Source: Alphaproteobacteria bacterium (GTDB lineage: Bacteria; Pseudomonadota; Alphaproteobacteria; UBA828). From it: DNA of 32,880 nt. The stretch lies in NCBI GenBank assembly GCA_022826665.1, contig JAJDUK010000097.1, forward strand, positions 1 to 32,880, read 5' to 3'. The position numbers and the translations under genes were made by a program. Each line of letters begins with the position of its first letter. The stretch's first letter is position 1. Below, piece after piece: positions 2,310 through 30,272 of this stretch. Under the pieces are notes generated by a model. That model worked only from the letters and a program-made list of their open reading frames with translations. It was not told where the DNA came from and did no database searches.

Positions 2310-4664
2310 ATGAACGGTCCCGAAGAGAGAGACCGTGAACTCCAAGCGCTCAGGGATCGCATCTCTGCGCTCAGCGCGGCCACCCTGCGGATCAGCGCGA
2401 GCCTCGACCTCGCCACAGTACTGCAAGAGGTCGTCGACAGTGCGCGCGCGCTCACTGGTGCGCGCTACGGCGTCATCGCGACCGTCGACGACACGGGTGA
2501 GGTGCAAGATTTCGTCTCTTCCGGCTTCTCACCGGAGGAGCACGACCAACTCGCCGAGTGGGCCGACGGACCACGCCTCTTCGAGCACTTGCGGAACCTA
2601 CCCGGACCGTTGCAAGTCGGAGACCTGCACGACTACGTGCGCTCCCTCGGTTTTTCCCCGGACCTGATGGTCTCGAGCACCTTGCAGGGCGTGCCGATGC
2701 GCCACCGCGGTGTGCAGGTCGGCAACTTCTTCCTTGCCGGGAAGGGGGGCGGCGTAGAGTTCACCAGTGAGGACGAGGAGGTCGTGGTCCTGTTCGCTTC
2801 GCAGGCGGCGACTGCCATCGCGAACGCTCGTGCCCACCGCAAAGAGCAACGCGCCCGGGCCGACCTGGAGGCCCTCATCGACACCTCGCCGGTGGGTGTC
2901 GTGGTCTTCGACGCCCAAACCGGAAAGCCAGTGTCCTCCAATCGGGAGGCCAATCGAATCATCGACCCCCTTCGCATCCCGGGCCGTCCCGTAGAAGAGC
3001 TGCTCGAGGTGCTGAGCTTCCGGTTTGCCCACGGGCGCGAGGTCGCGCTTGACCGCTTCTCGCTTGCGCAGGAGCTGAAGAACTCGGGGGTGGTGCGCGC
3101 GGAGGAAGTCGTGGTCTCGGTGCCCGACGGGCGGAGCGTATCGATGCTGGTCAACGGAACGCCGATTCATGCCGATGATGGAACGGTGACGTCGGTGGTC
3201 GTCACCATGCAGGACCTTGCGCCGCTCAACGAGCTTGAGCGACTGCGCGCGGAGTTCCTGGGCATGGTAAGCCACGAACTGCGCGCGCCGCTCACCTCCA
3301 TCAAGGGCTCGACGGCCGCGGTGCTGGGCGCGGCGCCCGCTCTGCCGCGCGCCGAGCTAATGCAGTTCTTCCGCATCATCGACGGTCAGGCCGACCACAT
3401 GCAGGGCCTCATCGGCAACCTACTCGATGCGGGGCGCATCGAGGCGGGGACGCTGTCCGTGGATCCGGAGCCCTCCGATATTGCCGCGCTTGTGGACCGG
3501 GCGAGGAACACTTTTCGGAGCGGCGGCGGCAGACACACGGTCATGATTGACCTGCCGCCCGACCTTCCGCGGGTGATGGCGGATCGCGAGCGCGTCGTGC
3601 AGGTGCTGAACAACTTGCTTTCCAACGCGGCCCGTCACTCTCTAGAAACCTCTCCGATCCGCGTGGAGGCGGCGCGCGAAGGGGTGCACGTGGCGGTCGC
3701 GGTCTCGGACCAGGGCCAGGGAGTGCCTCCTGAAATGCTGGCGAATCTCTTTCACAAGCATGTGGCGCTTGCCGGCGGCGACGGAGAGGGCGGAATCGGG
3801 GCGACAGGGCTAGGGCTTGCAATCTGCAAGGGGCTGGTGGAAGCGCACGGGGGCCGCATCCGCGCCGAGAGCGCAGGCCTGGGCCAGGGCACAAGGTTTA
3901 CCTTCACGCTTCCGCTCTGCGACGACGGCGTTGGCGAGGCCCGATCCGGTCAAGCTCGCGCGCGCACCGCTGGCGTCTTTGGGCAGAAGCCGCGCATCCT
4001 CGTCGTCGACGACGACCCGAAGACCCTGCGCTACGTGCGCGACGCGCTTTCCCGGGCGGGCTACGCCACGCTGGTCACGGGAGAGCCGGGGGAGCTGGCG
4101 AGCCTGATTCGCACGGAGAGGCCCAGGCTCGTACTCCTGGATCTCCTGTTGCCGGGCACCGACGGCATCGAACTGATGGCGCAGGTCCCGGAGCTCTCCG
4201 ACCTGCCGGTGATCTTCATCTCGGGTTACGGCCGCGACGAGACGATCGCGCGGGCCTTTGAAAGCGGTGCCGCCGACTACATTGTCAAACCCTTCTCGCC
4301 GACGGAGCTGGTGGCGCGGGTCGGGGCAGCACTGCGAAGCCGTGCCGGCGCCGACCCCTTCGTTCTGGGAGCACTCGCCATCGACTACGAGCGGCGCAGA
4401 GTGACGGTGGAGGGGCGCGTGGTGGCGCTTACCGCCACCGAATACGAGCTGTTGCGCATCCTCTCGGTCAACGCCGGACAGGTGGTGACCTCCGACTCGC
4501 TGCTTCGCCAGGTGTGGGGCGCGCGCGCGCCCGGAGACACCGAGCCCGTGCGCGCCTTTGTCAAGAAGCTCAGGGCGAAGCTCGGCGACAGCGCGGCGAG
4601 TCCCACGTACATCTTCAACGAGCGGGGCGTCGGCTACCGCATGCCGAAACCCGGAGAGGACTGA
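2310..4664 (+). CDS. GAF-PAS histidine kinase fused to receiver and OmpR-type DNA-binding domain
   Basis: A 784-residue signalling protein that appears to hold a whole two-component pathway in one chain. From the ATG at 2310 the order is: short coiled coil, GAF domain (about 30-180), PAS domain (about 190-310), dimerisation/phosphoacceptor domain with the H-box SHELRAPLTS (His322), ATPase domain with N-box NNLLSNAARH and G-box GATGLGLAICKG, receiver starting at RILVVDDD (562) with phospho-acceptor Asp611 (LLDLLLPG) and conserved lysine in YIVKPF, and a C-terminal winged helix ending in GVGYRMPK. The winged helix has the OmpR/PhoB signature LTATEYELLRIL. There are no membrane segments, so it should be cytoplasmic and sense a soluble ligand through GAF or PAS. 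The frame opens earlier (ATG at 2166), but the residues encoded before 2310 look non-coding. Its target genes are unknown; the convergent LysR gene follows. Confidence 0.9.
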   Translation: MNGPEERDRELQALRDRISALSAATLRISASLDLATVLQEVVDSARALTGARYGVIATVDDTGEVQDFVSSGFSPEEHDQLAEWADGPRLFEHLRNLPGPLQVGDLHDYVRSLGFSPDLMVSSTLQGVPMRHRGVQVGNFFLAGKGGGVEFTSEDEEVVVLFASQAATAIANARAHRKEQRARADLEALIDTSPVGVVVFDAQTGKPVSSNREANRIIDPLRIPGRPVEELLEVLSFRFAHGREVALDRFSLAQELKNSGVVRAEEVVVSVPDGRSVSMLVNGTPIHADDGTVTSVVVTMQDLAPLNELERLRAEFLGMVSHELRAPLTSIKGSTAAVLGAAPALPRAELMQFFRIIDGQADHMQGLIGNLLDAGRIEAGTLSVDPEPSDIAALVDRARNTFRSGGGRHTVMIDLPPDLPRVMADRERVVQVLNNLLSNAARHSLETSPIRVEAAREGVHVAVAVSDQGQGVPPEMLANLFHKHVALAGGDGEGGIGATGLGLAICKGLVEAHGGRIRAESAGLGQGTRFTFTLPLCDDGVGEARSGQARARTAGVFGQKPRILVVDDDPKTLRYVRDALSRAGYATLVTGEPGELASLIRTERPRLVLLDLLLPGTDGIELMAQVPELSDLPVIFISGYGRDETIARAFESGAADYIVKPFSPTELVARVGAALRSRAGADPFVLGALAIDYERRRVTVEGRVVALTATEYELLRILSVNAGQVVTSDSLLRQVWGARAPGDTEPVRAFVKKLRAKLGDSAASPTYIFNERGVGYRMPKPGED

Positions 4665-5736: not shown

Positions 5737-5744
5737 AAAACTTT
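5737..5744. repeat. target-site duplication, left copy
   Basis: AAAACTTT at 5737-5744 directly abuts the left terminal repeat; the identical octamer is at 8308-8315 next to the right terminal repeat. An 8-bp duplication fits IS1595-family transposition. Confidence 0.93.
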
Positions 5745-5768
5745 GGGGATTATATACGTAAGTGACCA
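5745..5768. repeat. left terminal inverted repeat of IS1595-type element
   Basis: The 24 bases at 5745-5768 are the exact reverse complement of 8284-8307. The outer edge is GGGG and the inner edge is GTGACCA. It holds a perfect -10-like hexamer TATAAT on the minus strand (5749-5754), facing the LysR gene. Confidence 0.95.
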
Positions 5769-5775
5769 GTCCGAT

Positions 5776-6582
5776 TTATTCGCGCAGGGCACCGAAAACA
5801 CCACGCATGTCGTTCCGCTCGAAAAACCCAGCTACGCCTTGATGATCGAGTCCGTAAAACCCGCCTGAAAGCGTCGCGTCGCCAAACCAGCCAGTGCTGC
5901 GTTCGAGCGGCAGGTTCGTCCAGTCCATGTCGGGCCAGGTGTGCGGCCCAGACGCCAGCGCGGAGAACTCGACATCGACGGTGCGGCCGGAGAAATCAGC
6001 CTCGATGCGGGAGTCTCCTTGGATCGGGTGGCCAGTGATCGAGTTGACCCGGCCCGCCTCGGCATCGTAGCCGAAATGCTCCGAGCTCACGTGGATCGCG
6101 CGGACCTCGCCGATCCACACCGCGGAACCGTAGAGGGGCACGCTGGGCGACGGAAACCCGCCATAGGTGTAGCTGATCGTGTCCTCGATCTCGCCGGTGA
6201 GCAGGTGATGGCGCCGCTCGCCGCTCAGATACGCCTCGAACAACCCATATCCGCCGTCTGTAGCCGAGAGACCCCAGTTCCCATAGACGTCGGCCATGCT
6301 GTCGATATTGCCCTTGTCGTTAACCGTGCGGTCAACAGTCAGGGTTCCATAATCATCAAGACGCAGCCCACCCGCCGGGCCTGCGTCCTCCTCGGGTGTG
6401 GGCTTGGACCCTCCTGCATCGAGTTCATCCAGGCGCTCTTGCCACAGATCGGTCAGTTCCTGGACGCTCTCCAGCGTCTGCTTGAGTGCCGCCTTGGTCT
6501 CGGAGTCGACGCCGGTGACACAGGCGGAAAGGGATAGCAGCGCTGCCGCGGCCAGGGCCGCGCCAATCGTTCTCGATTTCAT
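5776..6582 (-). CDS. TbpB-like beta-barrel surface lipoprotein, transposon cargo
   Basis: A 268-residue predicted lipoprotein. The start at 6582 gives a classic signal peptide MKSRTIGAALAAAALLSLSA with lipobox LSAC (Cys21 lipidated). A charged helical linker follows (about 30-75), then a domain rich in alternating strands. The end of the protein, GGFYGLDHQGVAGFFERND and then GVFGALR, is the hallmark closing motif of transferrin-binding-protein-B-like beta-barrels, where the pattern is G-x-F-Y-G plus E-x-x-G-x-F plus G-x-F-G-A. In pathogens that fold binds host iron proteins; in free-living bacteria its ligand is usually unknown. The stop codon lies only 8 bp inside the left terminal repeat, so the gene is certainly part of the transposon. 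Neither iron uptake nor a SLAM exporter partner is visible nearby. Confidence 0.82.
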   Translation of the reverse strand: MKSRTIGAALAAAALLSLSACVTGVDSETKAALKQTLESVQELTDLWQERLDELDAGGSKPTPEEDAGPAGGLRLDDYGTLTVDRTVNDKGNIDSMADVYGNWGLSATDGGYGLFEAYLSGERRHHLLTGEIEDTISYTYGGFPSPSVPLYGSAVWIGEVRAIHVSSEHFGYDAEAGRVNSITGHPIQGDSRIEADFSGRTVDVEFSALASGPHTWPDMDWTNLPLERSTGWFGDATLSGGFYGLDHQGVAGFFERNDMRGVFGALRE

Positions 6583-6829
6583 GGCCGTGCGCCTTCTGCG
6601 GTGCTGGCGCCGGCTGGTGCCGGGCCGTGCAAACATCCCAGACAGACGTAGGGAGTCCCGCCTATTCGCCAAGTGCAGGGAGCTACCCCGCACCGGGTCT
6701 CAGGCTATGGTATTCAGCGGGCGACCCGACTTGCGGGTCTGCCTGGGTGTTTGCAGGCGGGAGTGTAGCACATGCGCTTTACGCTCAATGTGCACATTTG
6801 GTAGGATGGCGGATCACGAAGGAATACCG

Positions 6830-7018
6830 ATGACCAAGACCACGACACGCGGTCGAGGCCGCCCGGTCGAAAAGCCGATGCCCGACCCGATACCCGATAC
6901 CCCGGAGAACGTGGCGCGCGCTCTCCTGACTACCCCGCCCAAGGGCGAGGACGAATGGGATTACCTCAAGGAGCGGGAGATTCCGGCTCCGCCGGGAGGC
7001 GATTCTTCAGCTTCCTGA
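6830..7018 (+). CDS. small protein of IS1595-type element, GRP motif
   Basis: A 62-residue protein starting at the ATG at 6830, six bases after an AAGGA ribosome binding site. It is basic at the N terminus (TTTRGRGRPVEKP), then proline-rich and acidic with the pattern DTPENVARALL, PPKGEDEWDYLKE. Small proteins with a GRP start and a PPK-x-W-x-YL-like end are, from memory, seen in many environmental genomes and next to transposases, with no known activity. Its last 53 bases overlap the end of the opposing small gene (6966-7121). It lies wholly inside the transposon and could modulate transposition or be an antitoxin-like DNA binder; both are speculation. Confidence 0.7.
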   Translation: MTKTTTRGRGRPVEKPMPDPIPDTPENVARALLTTPPKGEDEWDYLKEREIPAPPGGDSSAS

Positions 7019-7121
7019 GCTGCGCGCTGTGGTCCGCGTCCATGTCCTCGACGCGGCTATCTAGGGATTTGAACAGCTCGTAAAGCTGCGCGTTCGTGGG
7101 CGCAGGTGTGTCGGCAGGCAT
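6966..7121 (-). CDS. 51-residue coiled-coil protein, transposon cargo
   Basis: A very short gene supported by an excellent ribosome binding site: AAGGAGG lies eight bases before the ATG at 7121. The product begins MPADTPAPTNAQLYELFKSL, continues DSRVEDMDADHSAQLRKLKNRL and ends in PAEPESPAP. The middle is a heptad-like amphipathic helix, so a short coiled coil is likely. It is encoded on the strand opposite to the gene at 6830-7018, and the two genes share 53 bp at their 3' ends. It sits upstream of the lipoprotein gene on the same strand. No function is known to me. Confidence 0.65.
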   Translation of the reverse strand: MPADTPAPTNAQLYELFKSLDSRVEDMDADHSAQLRKLKNRLPAEPESPAP

Positions 7122-7230
7122 GTTTCATGCCTCCTTCGCGGGCGCGAAGGACTTGCCAATCCGCACGGACTGCCATAGACAAAGGGCTTCCGCGTCGCGT
7201 GTCGGCTTGGCAAAGACCTACGCGACTTTA

Positions 7231-7259
7231 GAACGCCACCCGCCTATCGGGTGGCGTTC
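7231..7259. terminator. strong hairpin, likely terminator inside the transposon
   Basis: GAACGCCACCCG (7231-7242) pairs perfectly with CGGGTGGCGTTC (7248-7259) across a five-base loop. On the plus strand it is followed by GCCTTTCT, a modest T-run. It lies 21 bases beyond the transposase stop on the minus strand, and downstream of the plus-strand small gene. It probably insulates the cargo from the transposase transcript. Confidence 0.7.
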
Positions 7260-7280
7260 GCCTTTCTACCGCGGGCTCTT

Positions 7281-8219
7281 TCAGGCGATCAAGTCTTTGT
7301 AGCGCAAGCGCTTCCCGACCATGCCCTGCGCCATGTGCGCCATCTGGTCGATGGTGTCGGCCTCGCGGTCGTTGTGCCGGCCTGCGAACTCGCTGACGTA
7401 GCGGTCCAGGTGCTTCGGGCTCATGTGGTGATAGGTGCCGTGGTAGCCGCGCTTCAACATGGACCAGAACGACTCCATGCCGTTCGTGTGCGCCTGATCC
7501 CGGACGTACTCACCGATGCTGTGCTTGACGGCCTCATGGTCGAAGGCCATTCCCTGATATGCCCTGGCTTCATCGGTGTAGACCGTGGCGCCCGGCGCGG
7601 CGTGATCCGCGACGAAGCCCTGTAGGGAGGCGCTGGTCGTGTCCGGGACGGATCGGGCGCTGACCGCGTTCGTGGCGCGATCCTTCGCACCGGCCACGGC
7701 GGTCTTGCCCACGCTCCCGCGTCCTGCCCGCAGCTTCAGCTTGGCGTGCTTGTTCTTCTCTTTGCCACCGATGTAGGTCTCGTCGACCTCGACCGGCCCG
7801 GCCATGCCGCCTGCCTTCTTCGTCCAGGTCTCCCGGATGCGGTGCGCCAGATGCCAAGCCGATTTCTGAGTGATGCCCAGGTCTCGATGCAGCTTCATGC
7901 TGGCCTGGCCCTTCAAGCCCGTGGTCAGCAGGTAGCTCGCCACCGCCCACACCTGCAAACCCAGCTTGCTCGACTGCATCACCGTGCCCGTCTTGACCGA
8001 GAACCACTTGCGGCAGTCCCGGCAGCGATAAGGCATGGTCTTATGCTTCGTGCCGTCCTGGATATTCACCGACCCGCAATGCGGACAGTGAATATTCCCG
8101 CCCGGCCAGCGTATCTCCGTAAACCACCGCTCCGCAGATGCGTCATCGGGAAAACGCCTGAATAAATCAGCCAGCGTCATCCCCTCCCGATAATGCTTGC
8201 CCGGTGCTGCCTGTCCCAT
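7281..8219 (-). CDS. IS1595-family (ISXO2-like) transposase
   Basis: A full-length 312-residue DDE transposase. The N terminus carries a zinc ribbon: CPHC at 45-48 and CRDC at 66-69. The catalytic core follows with VEVDETYIGGK (Asp146), VYTDEARAY (Asp216) and an NGMESFWSMLKRGYHGTYHHMS block (around Glu249), the signature order of the ISXO2/IS1595 family. A GGGAGGG ribosome binding site precedes the ATG at 8219. The reading frame is uninterrupted and the element's ends are perfect, so the enzyme is probably active. It catalyses cut-and-paste or copy-type movement of the 5745-8307 element. Confidence 0.95.
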   Translation of the reverse strand: MGQAAPGKHYREGMTLADLFRRFPDDASAERWFTEIRWPGGNIHCPHCGSVNIQDGTKHKTMPYRCRDCRKWFSVKTGTVMQSSKLGLQVWAVASYLLTTGLKGQASMKLHRDLGITQKSAWHLAHRIRETWTKKAGGMAGPVEVDETYIGGKEKNKHAKLKLRAGRGSVGKTAVAGAKDRATNAVSARSVPDTTSASLQGFVADHAAPGATVYTDEARAYQGMAFDHEAVKHSIGEYVRDQAHTNGMESFWSMLKRGYHGTYHHMSPKHLDRYVSEFAGRHNDREADTIDQMAHMAQGMVGKRLRYKDLIA

Positions 8220-8283
8220 GGTCTCTCACCCTCCCTGAATATTGGAAATATGGTGACCATGCGGGCAGGCTTCAACCGAAAAA

Positions 8284-8307
8284 TGGTCACTTACGTATAT
8301 AATCCCC
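8284..8307. repeat. right terminal inverted repeat of IS1595-type element
   Basis: Exact reverse complement of 5745-5768. Contains an outward-facing TATAAT at 8298-8303 on the plus strand, pointing toward the ROK regulator. Confidence 0.95.
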
Positions 8308-8315
8308 AAAACTTT
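8308..8315. repeat. target-site duplication, right copy
   Basis: AAAACTTT, identical to 5737-5744. Removing the transposon and one copy rejoins the LysR upstream region to the sequence at 8316, which lacks an obvious divergent gene. Confidence 0.93.
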
Positions 8316-10246: not shown

Positions 10247-11651
10247 GCAGTCTGTCGGACTTTGGGGTCGGATTTCGATTATGAACGATTTGGCTGTGGT
10301 CTGGCGGCGGCACGATCGAGTTTGGATGAGATGGCGAGGATGAGGTTGAGGCGATCGCTGGAACGTCGATTTCCGGCACTGGCGGGCTGTGTCGCCGCAT
10401 CCGCATCGAGACGTCGGGTCAGGAACGCCGTCATGACGCCATGGACAGCGTCAGCTTGTGCAGGCGCTTGCAGTTGTAGGCCAGCGCCACCAGGTTCCAC
10501 TCGCCGGCCACCTTGTCGAGGCCGCGCAGCGAGAAGCGGGTGAAGCCGAGGACCGCCTTGATAATGCCGAACACCGGCTCGACGGTTTGCCGACGCAGCC
10601 TGTACAGCGCCCGGCCCTCTTCGCTGTAACCGTCTCGGGCCGGCCCACCTCGGCCGCGATCGCCGCGATGTCCGCCACCAACTCGTTGCGGTCGCTGGCG
10701 CAGGGGCTGACCCGCGCCCCCACGATCAGCTGAGAGCCCCGGCATCCACCACGGCTTGCGCATTGTAGGCCTGGCGGTACTCGTGCCTCTTGCTCTTGCG
10801 CATCAGCCGGCTGTCCGGATCGCTCAGGTTGCTCTGCTCGTCGCCGCGCGGCGTCCCCTCGGGCGGCTTCGGCCGCTTGCCCTTGGCCCGGCCCCTGCGC
10901 CCGGCGCGCGCCGCTACCTTGGCCTCGTAGGCCGCTCGCTCCGCCTCGGCACGCGCCTTGGCCTGGGCCTCAAGACGCCGACGCGCCGCGTCCGGGCGCG
11001 CGCACAAAGCCTCACGGCGCGCAATCTCCTCAGGCAGCGCCTGCATCTCCTCGCCGGCGCCGGCGTCCGCCGCCTCGGCACGCTCCATCAGATCGGCGAT
11101 CTCCAGGCGTAACTGGTCAATCAGCTCCCCCGCCCGGTCAAACCTGACCGAGCGATGCTTGCTCGCAGCGGCCTCGAACTTGCTGCCGTCGACGCTGACC
11201 ACGCCCAGCGTCACCAGCTTCAACTCCTTGGCCAACAGCAGAACCTGAAGAGAGCTCTCAGCGATCGCCCCACGGTTCTCGCGCCGGAAGGTCGCGATCG
11301 TGTCATGGTCCGGATGGCTGTTGGCGGCAACGAAGCGCACCCCGAGGTCGCGACAGGTCGCGCGCTCGATCCGACGACTCGAGAAAGTCCCGTTGGCATA
11401 GCAGTAGATCAGAAGCGCCAGCATCATCCGGGGGTGATACTGCGCCGAGCCGCTGCCGCGACGGTTCACCTTGAAGGCGCCCATGTCGACGCGCTCAACC
11501 GCCTCGATCACGAAGTGCGCCAGATCATCCTCCGGGATCCAATCCCGAAGATCGGGCGGAAGCAAGAAAGCCTGGTCCCGACCACAATCCACGAATCTGC
11601 TCATAGACGAATTCCAGCTGAACAACACCTCCAAAGTCCGACAGACTGCTA
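10245..11651. mobile_element. decayed IS1182-type insertion sequence
   Basis: An element of about 1.4 kb with 21-bp perfect inverted repeats at its ends (10245-10265 and 11631-11651, beginning TAGCAGTCTGTCGG). CTA occurs at both edges and may be part of a CTAG-like target or a 3-bp duplication. It carries one IS1182-family transposase gene that is frameshifted and internally deleted, so the copy is not autonomous. It lies inside an integrase remnant, but the integrase reading frame does not resume on the right side, which implies a deletion next to the element after insertion. Confidence 0.85.
10431..11604 (-). pseudogene. IS1182-family transposase, frameshifted and internally deleted
   Basis: The N-terminal part reads MSRFVDCGRDQAFLLPPDLR, WIPEDDLAHFV and the DDE region VVSVDGSKFEA, with a long charged helical insert rich in Ala, Arg and Glu and then RLMRKSKRHEYRQAYNAQAV. 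The frame breaks at the C4 run near 10737-10740, where one base is missing. A second frame continues (GARVSPCASDRNELVADIAA) until about 10625-10635, where it jumps to a third frame (YSEEGRALYRLRRQTVEPVF, then the C-terminal AYNCKRLHKL). At that junction a block of several tens of residues normally found in IS1182 proteins is absent. A start at 11634 is also possible. Confidence 0.85.
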
Positions 11652-27958: not shown

Positions 27959-27983
27959 GCAACGGAACGCAGGAGGAATGTCA

Positions 27984-29108
27984 ATGGCGACGGTTCGCCT
28001 CAGCGAGCGCCGGATCGATGCGCTCAAGCCCCGCAAGTCCGCCTACGACGTGCGCGACCGGGAACTCAAGGGTTTCGGCGTCAGGGTCCTGACCTCGGGC
28101 GCCAGACGCTACTTCATCCACAGCCAGCACAACGGGCGGCGGTTCTGGAAGATCGTCGGCCAGGCCGGGGACATCGGCCTGGACGAAGCACGCAGCCGGG
28201 CCAAGAACCTGCTGGCCGCGATCCGCAACGGCGGCGACGAGACCACGGCACTGCCAGATATCGCCTTCGAGACAGTCGCCGATGAAGTGTTCCACCGCTA
28301 CGCCCGAAACTGGAAGCCGTCCACGCTTGAGGTCAACCGAGGCTACTACAAGAACCAGATCCTGCCCTGGTTCGAGGGGCGTCCCATCGCAGACATCGCC
28401 GCGAGCGACGTCCGGCAATGGTTCGCCTCCCTTCACGGGACCCCGGTGGCCGCCGACCGCTCGGCTCCGGTGCTCTCGGTCATCATGAGCCAGGCCGAGG
28501 TCTACGGCTACCGGCCCGAGGGCACCAACCCCTGCGCCGGCATCAAGCGCTACCGCCGCCAGGGCCGGGAGCGCTTTCTGTCGGCGGCGGAGATGCGCCG
28601 GCTGGGCGAAGTGCTGACGCGCCATGAAGCCGACAATCCGCAGGCCGTGGCGATCGTACGGCTGCTGCTGCTCACCGGATGCCGCAAGGGCGAGATCGTC
28701 TCGCTCAAGTGGCGCGACTACCGCGAGGGCAGTCTGTTCCTGCGCGATAGCAAGGTCGGGCCGCGCACGGTCTGGCTCTCGTCCCCCGCGCGCGCGGTCC
28801 TCGACGGACTGCCTCGCACGGCAACCTGGATATTCCCCTCGCCGCGGACCGACGGCTTCGTGCACGCGGTGACGCTCGGCAAATTCTGGCGCCGCGTCAG
28901 AGCGGAGGCCGATCTGTCCGACGTCCGCCTTCACGATTGCCGGCACACGTACGCCAGCATGGCGCTGGCGCAGGGCGAGACGGTGCTGACCATCGGCCGC
29001 CTGCTCGGGCACCGCAATCCAACGACGACGCTGAAATACACACATCTGTCCGACGCGATGGTGCGCGAGGCGGCCGACATCGTCGGCGCCGCATTGGTGG
29101 AGGGTTGA
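27984..29108 (+). CDS. tyrosine recombinase / integrase (first of a pair)
   Basis: A 374-residue site-specific recombinase. The N terminus is an Arm DNA-binding domain (LSERRIDALKPRKSAYDVRD, GFGVRVLTSGARRYF) of the P4-type integrase family. A core-binding SAM-like domain comes next, then the catalytic domain with Arg234 (TGCRKGEI), a Lys in RDSKVGPR, His317/Arg320 (HDCRHTYAS), His343 (LLGHRNPTTT) and nucleophile Tyr352 (LKYTHL). All catalytic residues are present. Two ATGs occur; the one at 27984 is preferred as it stands seven bases after AGGAGG, whereas 27978 is too close. The next integrase begins three bases after its stop. No tRNA target gene is near. Confidence 0.95.
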   Translation: MATVRLSERRIDALKPRKSAYDVRDRELKGFGVRVLTSGARRYFIHSQHNGRRFWKIVGQAGDIGLDEARSRAKNLLAAIRNGGDETTALPDIAFETVADEVFHRYARNWKPSTLEVNRGYYKNQILPWFEGRPIADIAASDVRQWFASLHGTPVAADRSAPVLSVIMSQAEVYGYRPEGTNPCAGIKRYRRQGRERFLSAAEMRRLGEVLTRHEADNPQAVAIVRLLLLTGCRKGEIVSLKWRDYREGSLFLRDSKVGPRTVWLSSPARAVLDGLPRTATWIFPSPRTDGFVHAVTLGKFWRRVRAEADLSDVRLHDCRHTYASMALAQGETVLTIGRLLGHRNPTTTLKYTHLSDAMVREAADIVGAALVEG

Positions 29109-29111
29109 GGC

Positions 29112-30272
29112 ATGGCCGCGAAGAGGCGGCGTCTGACCGACGCCAACGTGGCGAAGCTTGCGCCGGCGGCGCGCGAGTATACGGTCTGGGACGCGCGCCT
29201 CGCGGGTCTCGGCGTCCGCGTCCGCCCGTCGGGACACCGCAGCTTCGTGTATTGCTGCAAGGGCGAGGGCGGCGCGCGCAGGATCACCCTCGGACCTGCT
29301 GCGCTCATGGGCGTCGGGGAAGCCCGCGCCAAATGCCTCGAAATCGAAACCGCGCCGCACGGCGGCAGGCCGGAACGCGGACCGGTCCCGACTTTTGCGG
29401 ACTTCGTCGCCGGTCCGGCGCAGGCGCGGCTCAACACATGCAAGCCGTCGACGCAAAAGGGCGTGCGCCTGGTCCTGAGCGGGCTCCTGCTTCCGGCCTT
29501 CGGCCCGATGCCGCTGGACCGGATCGGCCGGATCGCCGTGACCCGCTGGTTCGACGAGTACAGCAGGACCGCGCCCGGCGGGGCCAATCGTGCGTTGAAC
29601 GTGCTCCGCCAGATCCTCAACCATGCGATCGACTGCGGCCACCTCGACACCAACCCCACGCACGGCATCAAGCGCAACCCCCGACCCAGGCTCACCCGCT
29701 TCCTCTCGTGCGATGAAGTCCATCGCCTTCACCGCGTGCTGGACCGCTACGCCGGCGCGCGGCCCTCGCGCGCGCAGCAGGCCGACATCGTCCGCCTTCT
29801 GCTGCTGACCGGATGCCGCAAAAGCGAGATCGTAACCATGCGCTGGCAGGACGTGGACGCAGACACCCTCAACCTCGTCGACGCCAAGACCGGGCCGAGA
29901 CAGGTGTTCCTGAATGCGCCGGCCCGCGCCGTCCTGGAGCGCCAGCCGCGATCGGGCAGCGCCTTCGTCTTTCCCTCGCCGTTCGATCCGGCGCGGCCGC
30001 AGTGCTCCGACCTCCCGCTCTGGTACGCGGTGCGCAGGGAGGCCGGGATCGAGGACGTGCGCCTCCATGACCTTCGTCATACGTTCGCCAGCCACGCCGT
30101 GCTTCAGGGCATTCCCTTGCCAGTGGTGTCCCGCCTGCTCGGCCACAAGAATCCGGGCATGACGCTGCGCTACGCCCATGTCGGCGACCGCGAGACCGAG
30201 GCGGCGGCGGAGCGCATCGGCACCGCAATCGCGCATGCGCTGGGCAGTCGGACGAGTATCTCGTCGAGCTGA
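29112..30272 (+). CDS. tyrosine recombinase / integrase (second of a pair)
   Basis: A 386-residue recombinase with the same domain order as the preceding one: Arm domain (RLTDANVAKLAPAAREYTVW), core-binding domain and catalytic domain with Arg236 (TGCRKSEIV), Lys in DAKTGPR, His319/Arg322 (HDLRHTFAS), His345 (LLGHKNPGMT) and Tyr354 (LRYAHV). The two proteins share only scattered identity, mostly around the active site, so this is an old pair rather than a recent duplication. A GGAGGG inside the end of the first gene serves as ribosome binding site, and only three bases separate the genes. Both look functional, which suggests they act together or have different recombination directions. Confidence 0.95.
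   Translation: MAAKRRRLTDANVAKLAPAAREYTVWDARLAGLGVRVRPSGHRSFVYCCKGEGGARRITLGPAALMGVGEARAKCLEIETAPHGGRPERGPVPTFADFVAGPAQARLNTCKPSTQKGVRLVLSGLLLPAFGPMPLDRIGRIAVTRWFDEYSRTAPGGANRALNVLRQILNHAIDCGHLDTNPTHGIKRNPRPRLTRFLSCDEVHRLHRVLDRYAGARPSRAQQADIVRLLLLTGCRKSEIVTMRWQDVDADTLNLVDAKTGPRQVFLNAPARAVLERQPRSGSAFVFPSPFDPARPQCSDLPLWYAVRREAGIEDVRLHDLRHTFASHAVLQGIPLPVVSRLLGHKNPGMTLRYAHVGDRETEAAAERIGTAIAHALGSRTSISSS

What the first reader, a model, noticed from the sequence alone, without database searches (positions are those of the whole stretch)
5745..8307. IS1595-type transposon carrying a TbpB-like lipoprotein and two tiny genes
Perfect 24-bp ends and an 8-bp duplication (AAAACTTT) define the element exactly. 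About 1.5 kb is not transposase: a TbpB-like surface lipoprotein whose stop is 8 bp from the left end, and two small ORFs with strong ribosome binding sites. IS1595-family elements with passenger genes are known, but a surface lipoprotein of this fold as cargo would be an unusual way to spread a cell-surface trait.
Basis: partly seen in the sequence, partly recalled or inferred. Interest (0 to 1): 0.75.

Follow-up and report, generated by a model that had tools for sequence, protein, structure and literature searches.

The report
Transposon carrying RNA-led surface-protein cassette
A small jumping gene in a bacterium whose close relatives live in sponges carries a surface lipoprotein gene headed by a previously unannotated folded RNA, and the same RNA heads dozens of other, mostly exported, protein genes in bacteria of about eleven phyla, often inside transposons, so it looks like a portable control element for shared surface genes.

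Summary
The element is real: 24-bp perfect ends, 8-bp duplication, an IS1595 transposase and a TbpB-like lipoprotein. Between the lipoprotein start and small ORF 1 lies a ~150-nt structured RNA on the lipoprotein strand (window 6610-6757). Using it as a probe I found 116 copies, many in MAGs named after sponge projects, in about 11 phyla; 7 of 8 same-genus genomes have it, but only 2 of 397 others in a phylum sample. It has a locus-specific outer helix (61/65 and, outside the search set, 36/41 above the 99th percentile of mismatched partners), a crossing second helix (102/116 fully paired), an invariant internal loop, and a -10 box just before its 5' end (66/115 versus 6-11 in other windows). 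It usually ends 75-95 nt before a start codon; 70% of those genes have a signal-peptide-like start versus 9% of neighbours. TbpB-like lipoproteins are the largest of 66 cargo families. About 20 copies lie in complete IS1595- or IS1-type transposons with different ends and duplications. It is a distant relative of Rfam sRNA-Xcc1 (below its cut-off). Best reading: a mobile cis-acting leader RNA for exported-protein genes; its effect on expression is inferred.

The parts
5737..5744 (.). left copy of the 8-bp target duplication AAAACTTT
5745..5768 (+). left terminal inverted repeat, 24 bp perfect
5776..6582 (-). cargo gene: 268-aa TbpB-like lipoprotein (lipobox LSAC, C-terminal barrel motif GGFYGLDHQGVAGFFERNDMRGVFGALRE)
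   Evidence: Pfam TbpB_B_D 20.3 bits, below the cut-off of 26, for this protein alone; family profile to PDB TbpB 1.9e-5; 8 of 15 relatives match TbpB_B_D
6610..6757 (-). structured leader RNA, 5' end at 6757
   Evidence: model R1 101.1 bits over 6617-6731 (this sequence was in the training set); z = -4.7; strand from G-U bias
6762..6767 (-). -10-like box TACACT just before the RNA 5' end
   Evidence: sequence; enriched at this place in 66 of 115 copies
6737..6757 (-). 5' arm of outer helix A
6628..6647 (-). 3' arm of outer helix A (A*)
6723..6730 (-). 5' strand of crossing helix B, GTCGGGTC
6619..6626 (-). 3' strand of helix B (B*), GGCCCGGC
6657..6721 (-). core stem with invariant internal loop TGAATACNAYA / GAATAG
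6610..6623 (-). alternative 3' hairpin CCGGC-ACCA-GCCGG using part of B*
   Evidence: B*:B' run of 5 or more in 83% against 49% shuffled
6830..7018 (+). small ORF 1, 62 aa; relatives in L013, L025, L026, L052, L169
6966..7121 (-). small ORF 2, 51 aa, no relative found
7281..8219 (-). IS1595-family transposase, 312 aa
8284..8307 (-). right terminal inverted repeat
8308..8315 (.). right copy of the 8-bp target duplication AAAACTTT

Best explanation
The 2,563-bp element is an IS1595-family transposon. Its passenger is a self-contained expression cassette: a promoter, a structured 5' leader RNA and one gene for an exported surface lipoprotein. Transcription starts at the 5' end of the RNA's outer helix and runs into the gene, so the RNA is the 5' untranslated region of the mRNA. 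The RNA forms a conserved core stem with an invariant internal loop, closed by a long locus-specific helix A, plus a second helix B that crosses A as a pseudoknot. The 3' strand of B can instead pair with a hairpin just downstream. I infer that switching between these two states, or recognition of the invariant loop by a widely conserved host factor, sets how strongly the exported protein is made in whatever host the transposon lands in. Shown by sequence comparison: the element, the conserved RNA and its strand, the promoter-like box, its position before genes with signal-peptide-like starts, and its recurrence in IS1595- and IS1-type transposons and in about 11 phyla. Inferred: transcription itself, the switch, its ligand or partner, and the benefit to the host.
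For: Locus-specific helix A: 61 of 65 copies above the 99th percentile of mismatched partners, 36 of 41 in copies found only by the model. Helix B fully paired in 102 of 116, 45 of 51 out of sample. Core covariation 43 double-change cells against 10.7 shuffled, 0 of 500. G-U 86 against A-C 34 in helix A fixes the strand. -10 box at one place in 66 of 115 against 6-11 in other windows. Signal-peptide-like start in 38 of 54 downstream genes against 37 of 408 neighbours; lipobox 17 of 54 against 1 of 408. Cargo families: TbpB-like, opacity/OMP barrels, serralysins, LRR, Flp pilin, GT25. Complete transposons with different ends and duplications around the same unit.
Against: No expression data of any kind. 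About four fifths of the RNA copies have no recognisable transposon around them. Some downstream genes are not exported (L073, L175). Many loci are MAG contigs, where mobile DNA can be mis-binned. The alternative 3' hairpin is only moderately above its control, so the switch is weakly supported. The signal-peptide test used a simple hydrophobicity rule.
Confidence: 0.75

Rival explanations
1. The RNA is a free-standing trans-acting small RNA, like sRNA-Xcc1 of Xanthomonas, that lies upstream of the cargo gene and is released from it by termination or processing.
For: Shared internal loop and helix B with RF02221; sRNA-Xcc1 was seen as a ~100-nt band on Northern blots (PMC2996969); a short copy in L044 ends in a T-run beside the transposon end.
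Against: The spacing to a ribosome binding site and start codon is nearly constant across unrelated genes; no T-run follows the hairpin in the long copies; RF02221 hits themselves mostly sit just before ORFs.
Confidence: 0.15
2. The structure acts as DNA: a folded recombination site, like integron attC, at which cargo genes are exchanged.
For: Cargo differs behind near-identical RNA blocks: L029 and L074, and the tandem units of L057; sRNA-Xcc1 occurs in integron cassettes (PMC12444791).
Against: Strand-specific G-U pairs and a promoter box at a fixed place are expected of RNA, not DNA; element ends are explained by transposase repeats.
Confidence: 0.07
3. An ordinary IS1595 passenger element: a resident lipoprotein gene was captured together with its own upstream region, and the RNA has no role in mobility or spread.
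For: TbpB-like lipoprotein paralogues, several without the RNA nearby, are common in the same genus; passenger genes in IS1595 elements are known.
Against: The RNA is nearly absent outside carrier genomes (2 of 397 others in the phylum sample), heads unrelated genes in many phyla and recurs in two transposon families.
Confidence: 0.15

Closest known systems
IS1595 family insertion sequences with passenger genes
   Same: DDE_Tnp_IS1595 domain, zinc ribbon, GGG-starting terminal repeats, 8-bp duplication, passenger genes
   Different: The passenger is headed by a conserved structured RNA that also occurs in IS1-type elements
sRNA-Xcc1 (Rfam RF02221), mobile in Xanthomonas integron cassettes and found upstream of symE (PMC2996969, PMC12444791)
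   Same: Helix B/B*, the internal loop AAUACAAUA / GAAUA, association with mobile DNA
   Different: Far below the Rfam cut-off; adds a long locus-specific helix A that crosses B; heads mostly exported-protein genes
Transferrin-binding protein B-like lipoproteins (TbpB_B_D, NHBA, hemophilin)
   Same: C-terminal barrel motif and lipobox
   Different: A single short barrel of 268 aa; the Pfam cut-off is not reached by the window protein alone; ligand unknown
Riboswitches and other cis-acting leader RNAs
   Same: 5' leader position, conserved loop, possible mutually exclusive pairings
   Different: Downstream genes share no metabolic pathway; no ligand known; no terminator or masked ribosome binding site evident

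Membership tests
IS1595 family transposon | IS1595-type transposase above the curated cut-off | tested here: met
   PF12762 141 bits (cut-off 27), NF033547 186 bits (cut-off 75)
IS1595 family transposon | terminal inverted repeats and 8-bp target duplication | tested here: met
IS1595 family transposon | ISfinder subgroup | not testable with these tools
   ISfinder is not available here
sRNA-Xcc1 (RF02221) | score at or above the gathering threshold of 53 bits | tested here: not met
   26.6 bits for the window; no hit at the threshold in 18 carrier loci
sRNA-Xcc1 (RF02221) | helix B/B* and conserved internal loop | tested here: met
   weak hits fall exactly on the RNA in the window, L015 and L019; G334 is hit by both models
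TbpB-like lipoprotein | Pfam TbpB_B_D gathering score by the window protein alone | tested here: not met
   20.3 bits against 26
TbpB-like lipoprotein | family profile matches solved TbpB structures | tested here: met
   4o3w 1.9e-5, NHBA 1.6e-4
TbpB-like lipoprotein | binding of transferrin or another host protein | not testable with these tools
   needs the protein
Cis-regulatory leader RNA | lies in the 5' leader of downstream genes on the same strand, with a promoter before it | tested here: met
   (by sequence only)
Cis-regulatory leader RNA | controls expression, with or without a ligand | not testable with these tools
   needs an experiment
Cis-regulatory leader RNA | mutually exclusive structures | tested here: inconclusive
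   alternative hairpin in 83% against 49% shuffled
Integron gene cassette | attC site and integron integrase | not tested
   no dedicated search; L042 has tandem phage-type tyrosine integrases upstream

The most novel reading that the evidence does not exclude
An unrecognised class of pseudoknotted leader RNA is the common unit of a mobile surface-gene exchange system: different transposons, and perhaps integrase elements, capture genes for exported proteins behind this RNA and trade them between phyla in sponge microbiomes, the RNA providing host-independent, switchable expression.
Probability: 0.5. Interest if true: 0.9.

Novelty: new variant of a known kind. Interest (0 to 1): 0.77.

Why it matters
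It would extend one orphan Xanthomonas small RNA to a widespread leader-RNA superfamily and give it a testable role. It would also suggest how symbionts of different phyla in one sponge could share cell-surface traits: small transposons that carry their own expression control. The conserved loop gives a concrete target for finding the protein or ligand it senses.

Tried and rejected
Integron attC-type site as first choice: outweighed by strand-specific G-U pairs and the fixed -10 box. Pattern hits L022, L059 and L082-L084 were rejected by eye as unrelated (flanks lack the helices); L077 is at most a weak, degraded copy. Blast of the whole element against plasmids gave one 10% match. A search for an empty site with joined flanks found only short diverged matches. 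My first out-of-sample test of helix A used a region that included the common core stem and gave an inflated threshold (21 of 42); the trimmed test gave 36 of 41. The main sRNA-Xcc1 paper, PMC3256417, is not held.

Full report
OBSERVATION. The transposase is a clear IS1595 member. The genome holds one full copy.

WHAT WAS MISSED. The blast against the host genome gave two extra short matches to the non-coding stretch between the lipoprotein and small ORF 1. One lies in a second complete IS1595 transposon of the same genome (L013, 2505 bp, duplication AAGCACTT) with a different secreted protein. The other lies upstream of a rhodanese-like lipoprotein. Aligning the three showed a shared fold with compensatory changes. 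Rfam gave only a weak sRNA-Xcc1 match.

DISTRIBUTION. An exact pattern of the core found 61 stretches in the collection of 84,980 species genomes; two were unrelated. By record title they come from Alpha- and Gammaproteobacteria, Gemmatimonadota, Acidobacteria, Chloroflexi, Latescibacterota, Poribacteria, Nitrospirales, Nitrospinae, Binatota, Rhodothermales and Opitutia, some on long contigs (2.9 Mb Latescibacterota L062, 267 kb Nitrospinae L070, 152 kb Nitrospirales L041). Many isolate names (RHO, IRC, COS, CAR) fit the demosponge species of PMC8163846; that link is my inference from the names. One of them, RHO3_bin_58 (L045), appears to be the same genome as G765 of the window's genus, since the RNA coordinates agree. 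A covariance model found 1-11 copies per carrier genome but hits in only 2 of 397 other genomes of a phylum sample. In the window's own genus 7 of 8 genomes carry it, counting its own; none of 6 sampled genomes from other genera of the family do.

STRUCTURE AND STRAND. Core helices: 95.9% of cells paired, 43 double-change cells against 10.7 by shuffling, 0 of 500. The outer helix A differs between loci yet is complementary within each (mean score 30.0 against 14.8; out of sample: 26.4 against 13.1). Helix B crosses A. G-U pairs outnumber A-C departures 86 to 34, so the RNA is read toward the lipoprotein. A -10 box stands at one place, just before the A arm, in 66 of 115 copies against 6-11 in other windows. 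The window RNA folds with z = -4.7.

WHAT IT HEADS. The core motif usually ends about 75-95 nt before a start codon. With start codons chosen without regard to signal peptides, 38 of 54 genes have a signal-peptide-like start against 37 of 408 neighbouring ORFs; the predictor is a simple hydrophobicity rule, not SignalP. Several exceptions belong to families that are exported by other routes (serralysins, Flp pilin) or act on the surface (GT25). The 94 cargo proteins fall into 66 families; the largest, 14 proteins by single linkage, is TbpB-like lipoproteins including the window's. Single linkage may chain a few of them through low-complexity segments.

TRANSPOSONS. About 20 copies lie inside complete elements with terminal repeats and 8-bp duplications: IS1595-type (window, L013, L025, L044, L052, L055, L065, L070, L144, L145, L158, L168, L227, L229, L234; weaker ends at L040 and L078; L166 with a distant transposase) and a second type with ends GGTA(G/C)TG... 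(L031, L034, L072, L226, L233). The transposase of L072 is IS1-like (below the NCBIfam cut-off). A shuffle control gave no such ends.

RELATION TO sRNA-Xcc1. Sub-threshold RF02221 hits fall exactly on the RNA in L015 and L019. One genome, G334, is hit by both models. RF02221 itself matches 46 of 376 genomes of the class, mostly just upstream of ORF starts. So sRNA-Xcc1 and this RNA look like two branches of one leader-RNA superfamily; this branch adds helix A.

CARGO PROTEIN. The window lipoprotein alone is below Pfam's cut-off, but its family profile matches TbpB and NHBA structures, and 8 of 15 members match TbpB_B_D. Relatives in the genus occur with and without the RNA nearby: RNA near L181, L187, L188 and L189.

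LIMITS. There are no expression data; many records are MAGs; about four fifths of copies have no recognisable transposon; no empty site was found for the window element.

Noticed in passing
L013:3825-3903; L044:842-917 and 3107-3179; L072:366-441, 2754-2829, 2843-2917; L158:4775-4850; L168:4234-4305: tRNA or tRNA-like genes, some with odd anticodon loops, lie inside five of the complete transposons.
   Followed up: partly
L044:675-757 (-): A second, short RNA of the sRNA-Xcc1 kind, without helix A and with a T-run after it, stands next to the right end of the same transposon.
   Followed up: partly
L118-L137: Rfam sRNA-Xcc1 hits in many genomes lie just before small ORFs (some look like KilA-N- or Rha-type genes by eye), and a 6-nt stretch before B* often pairs with a stretch after it.
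   Followed up: no
L029 and L074: The RNA, leader and start of the signal peptide are 90% identical and the next gene is 91% identical, but the cargo gene between them differs, as if swapped.
   Followed up: partly
L057: Two tandem RNA-plus-cargo units with 87% identical leaders and different genes.
   Followed up: no
window 27978-30272: Two adjacent tyrosine-integrase-like genes; L042 has a similar tandem pair just upstream of its RNA and lipoprotein.
   Followed up: no
window 10726-11634 (-): An ORF that looks like an IS1182-type transposase fragment, judged by eye from the translation.
   Followed up: no
L013 1987-2772 and 5223-5735: The second IS1595 element appears to interrupt a gene: similar reading frames continue on both sides of it.
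   Followed up: no
RNA core, alignment A2 columns 50-61: The terminal loop is often a short palindrome (GUAGCUAC, GUCAUGAC), which could allow loop-loop dimers.
   Followed up: no
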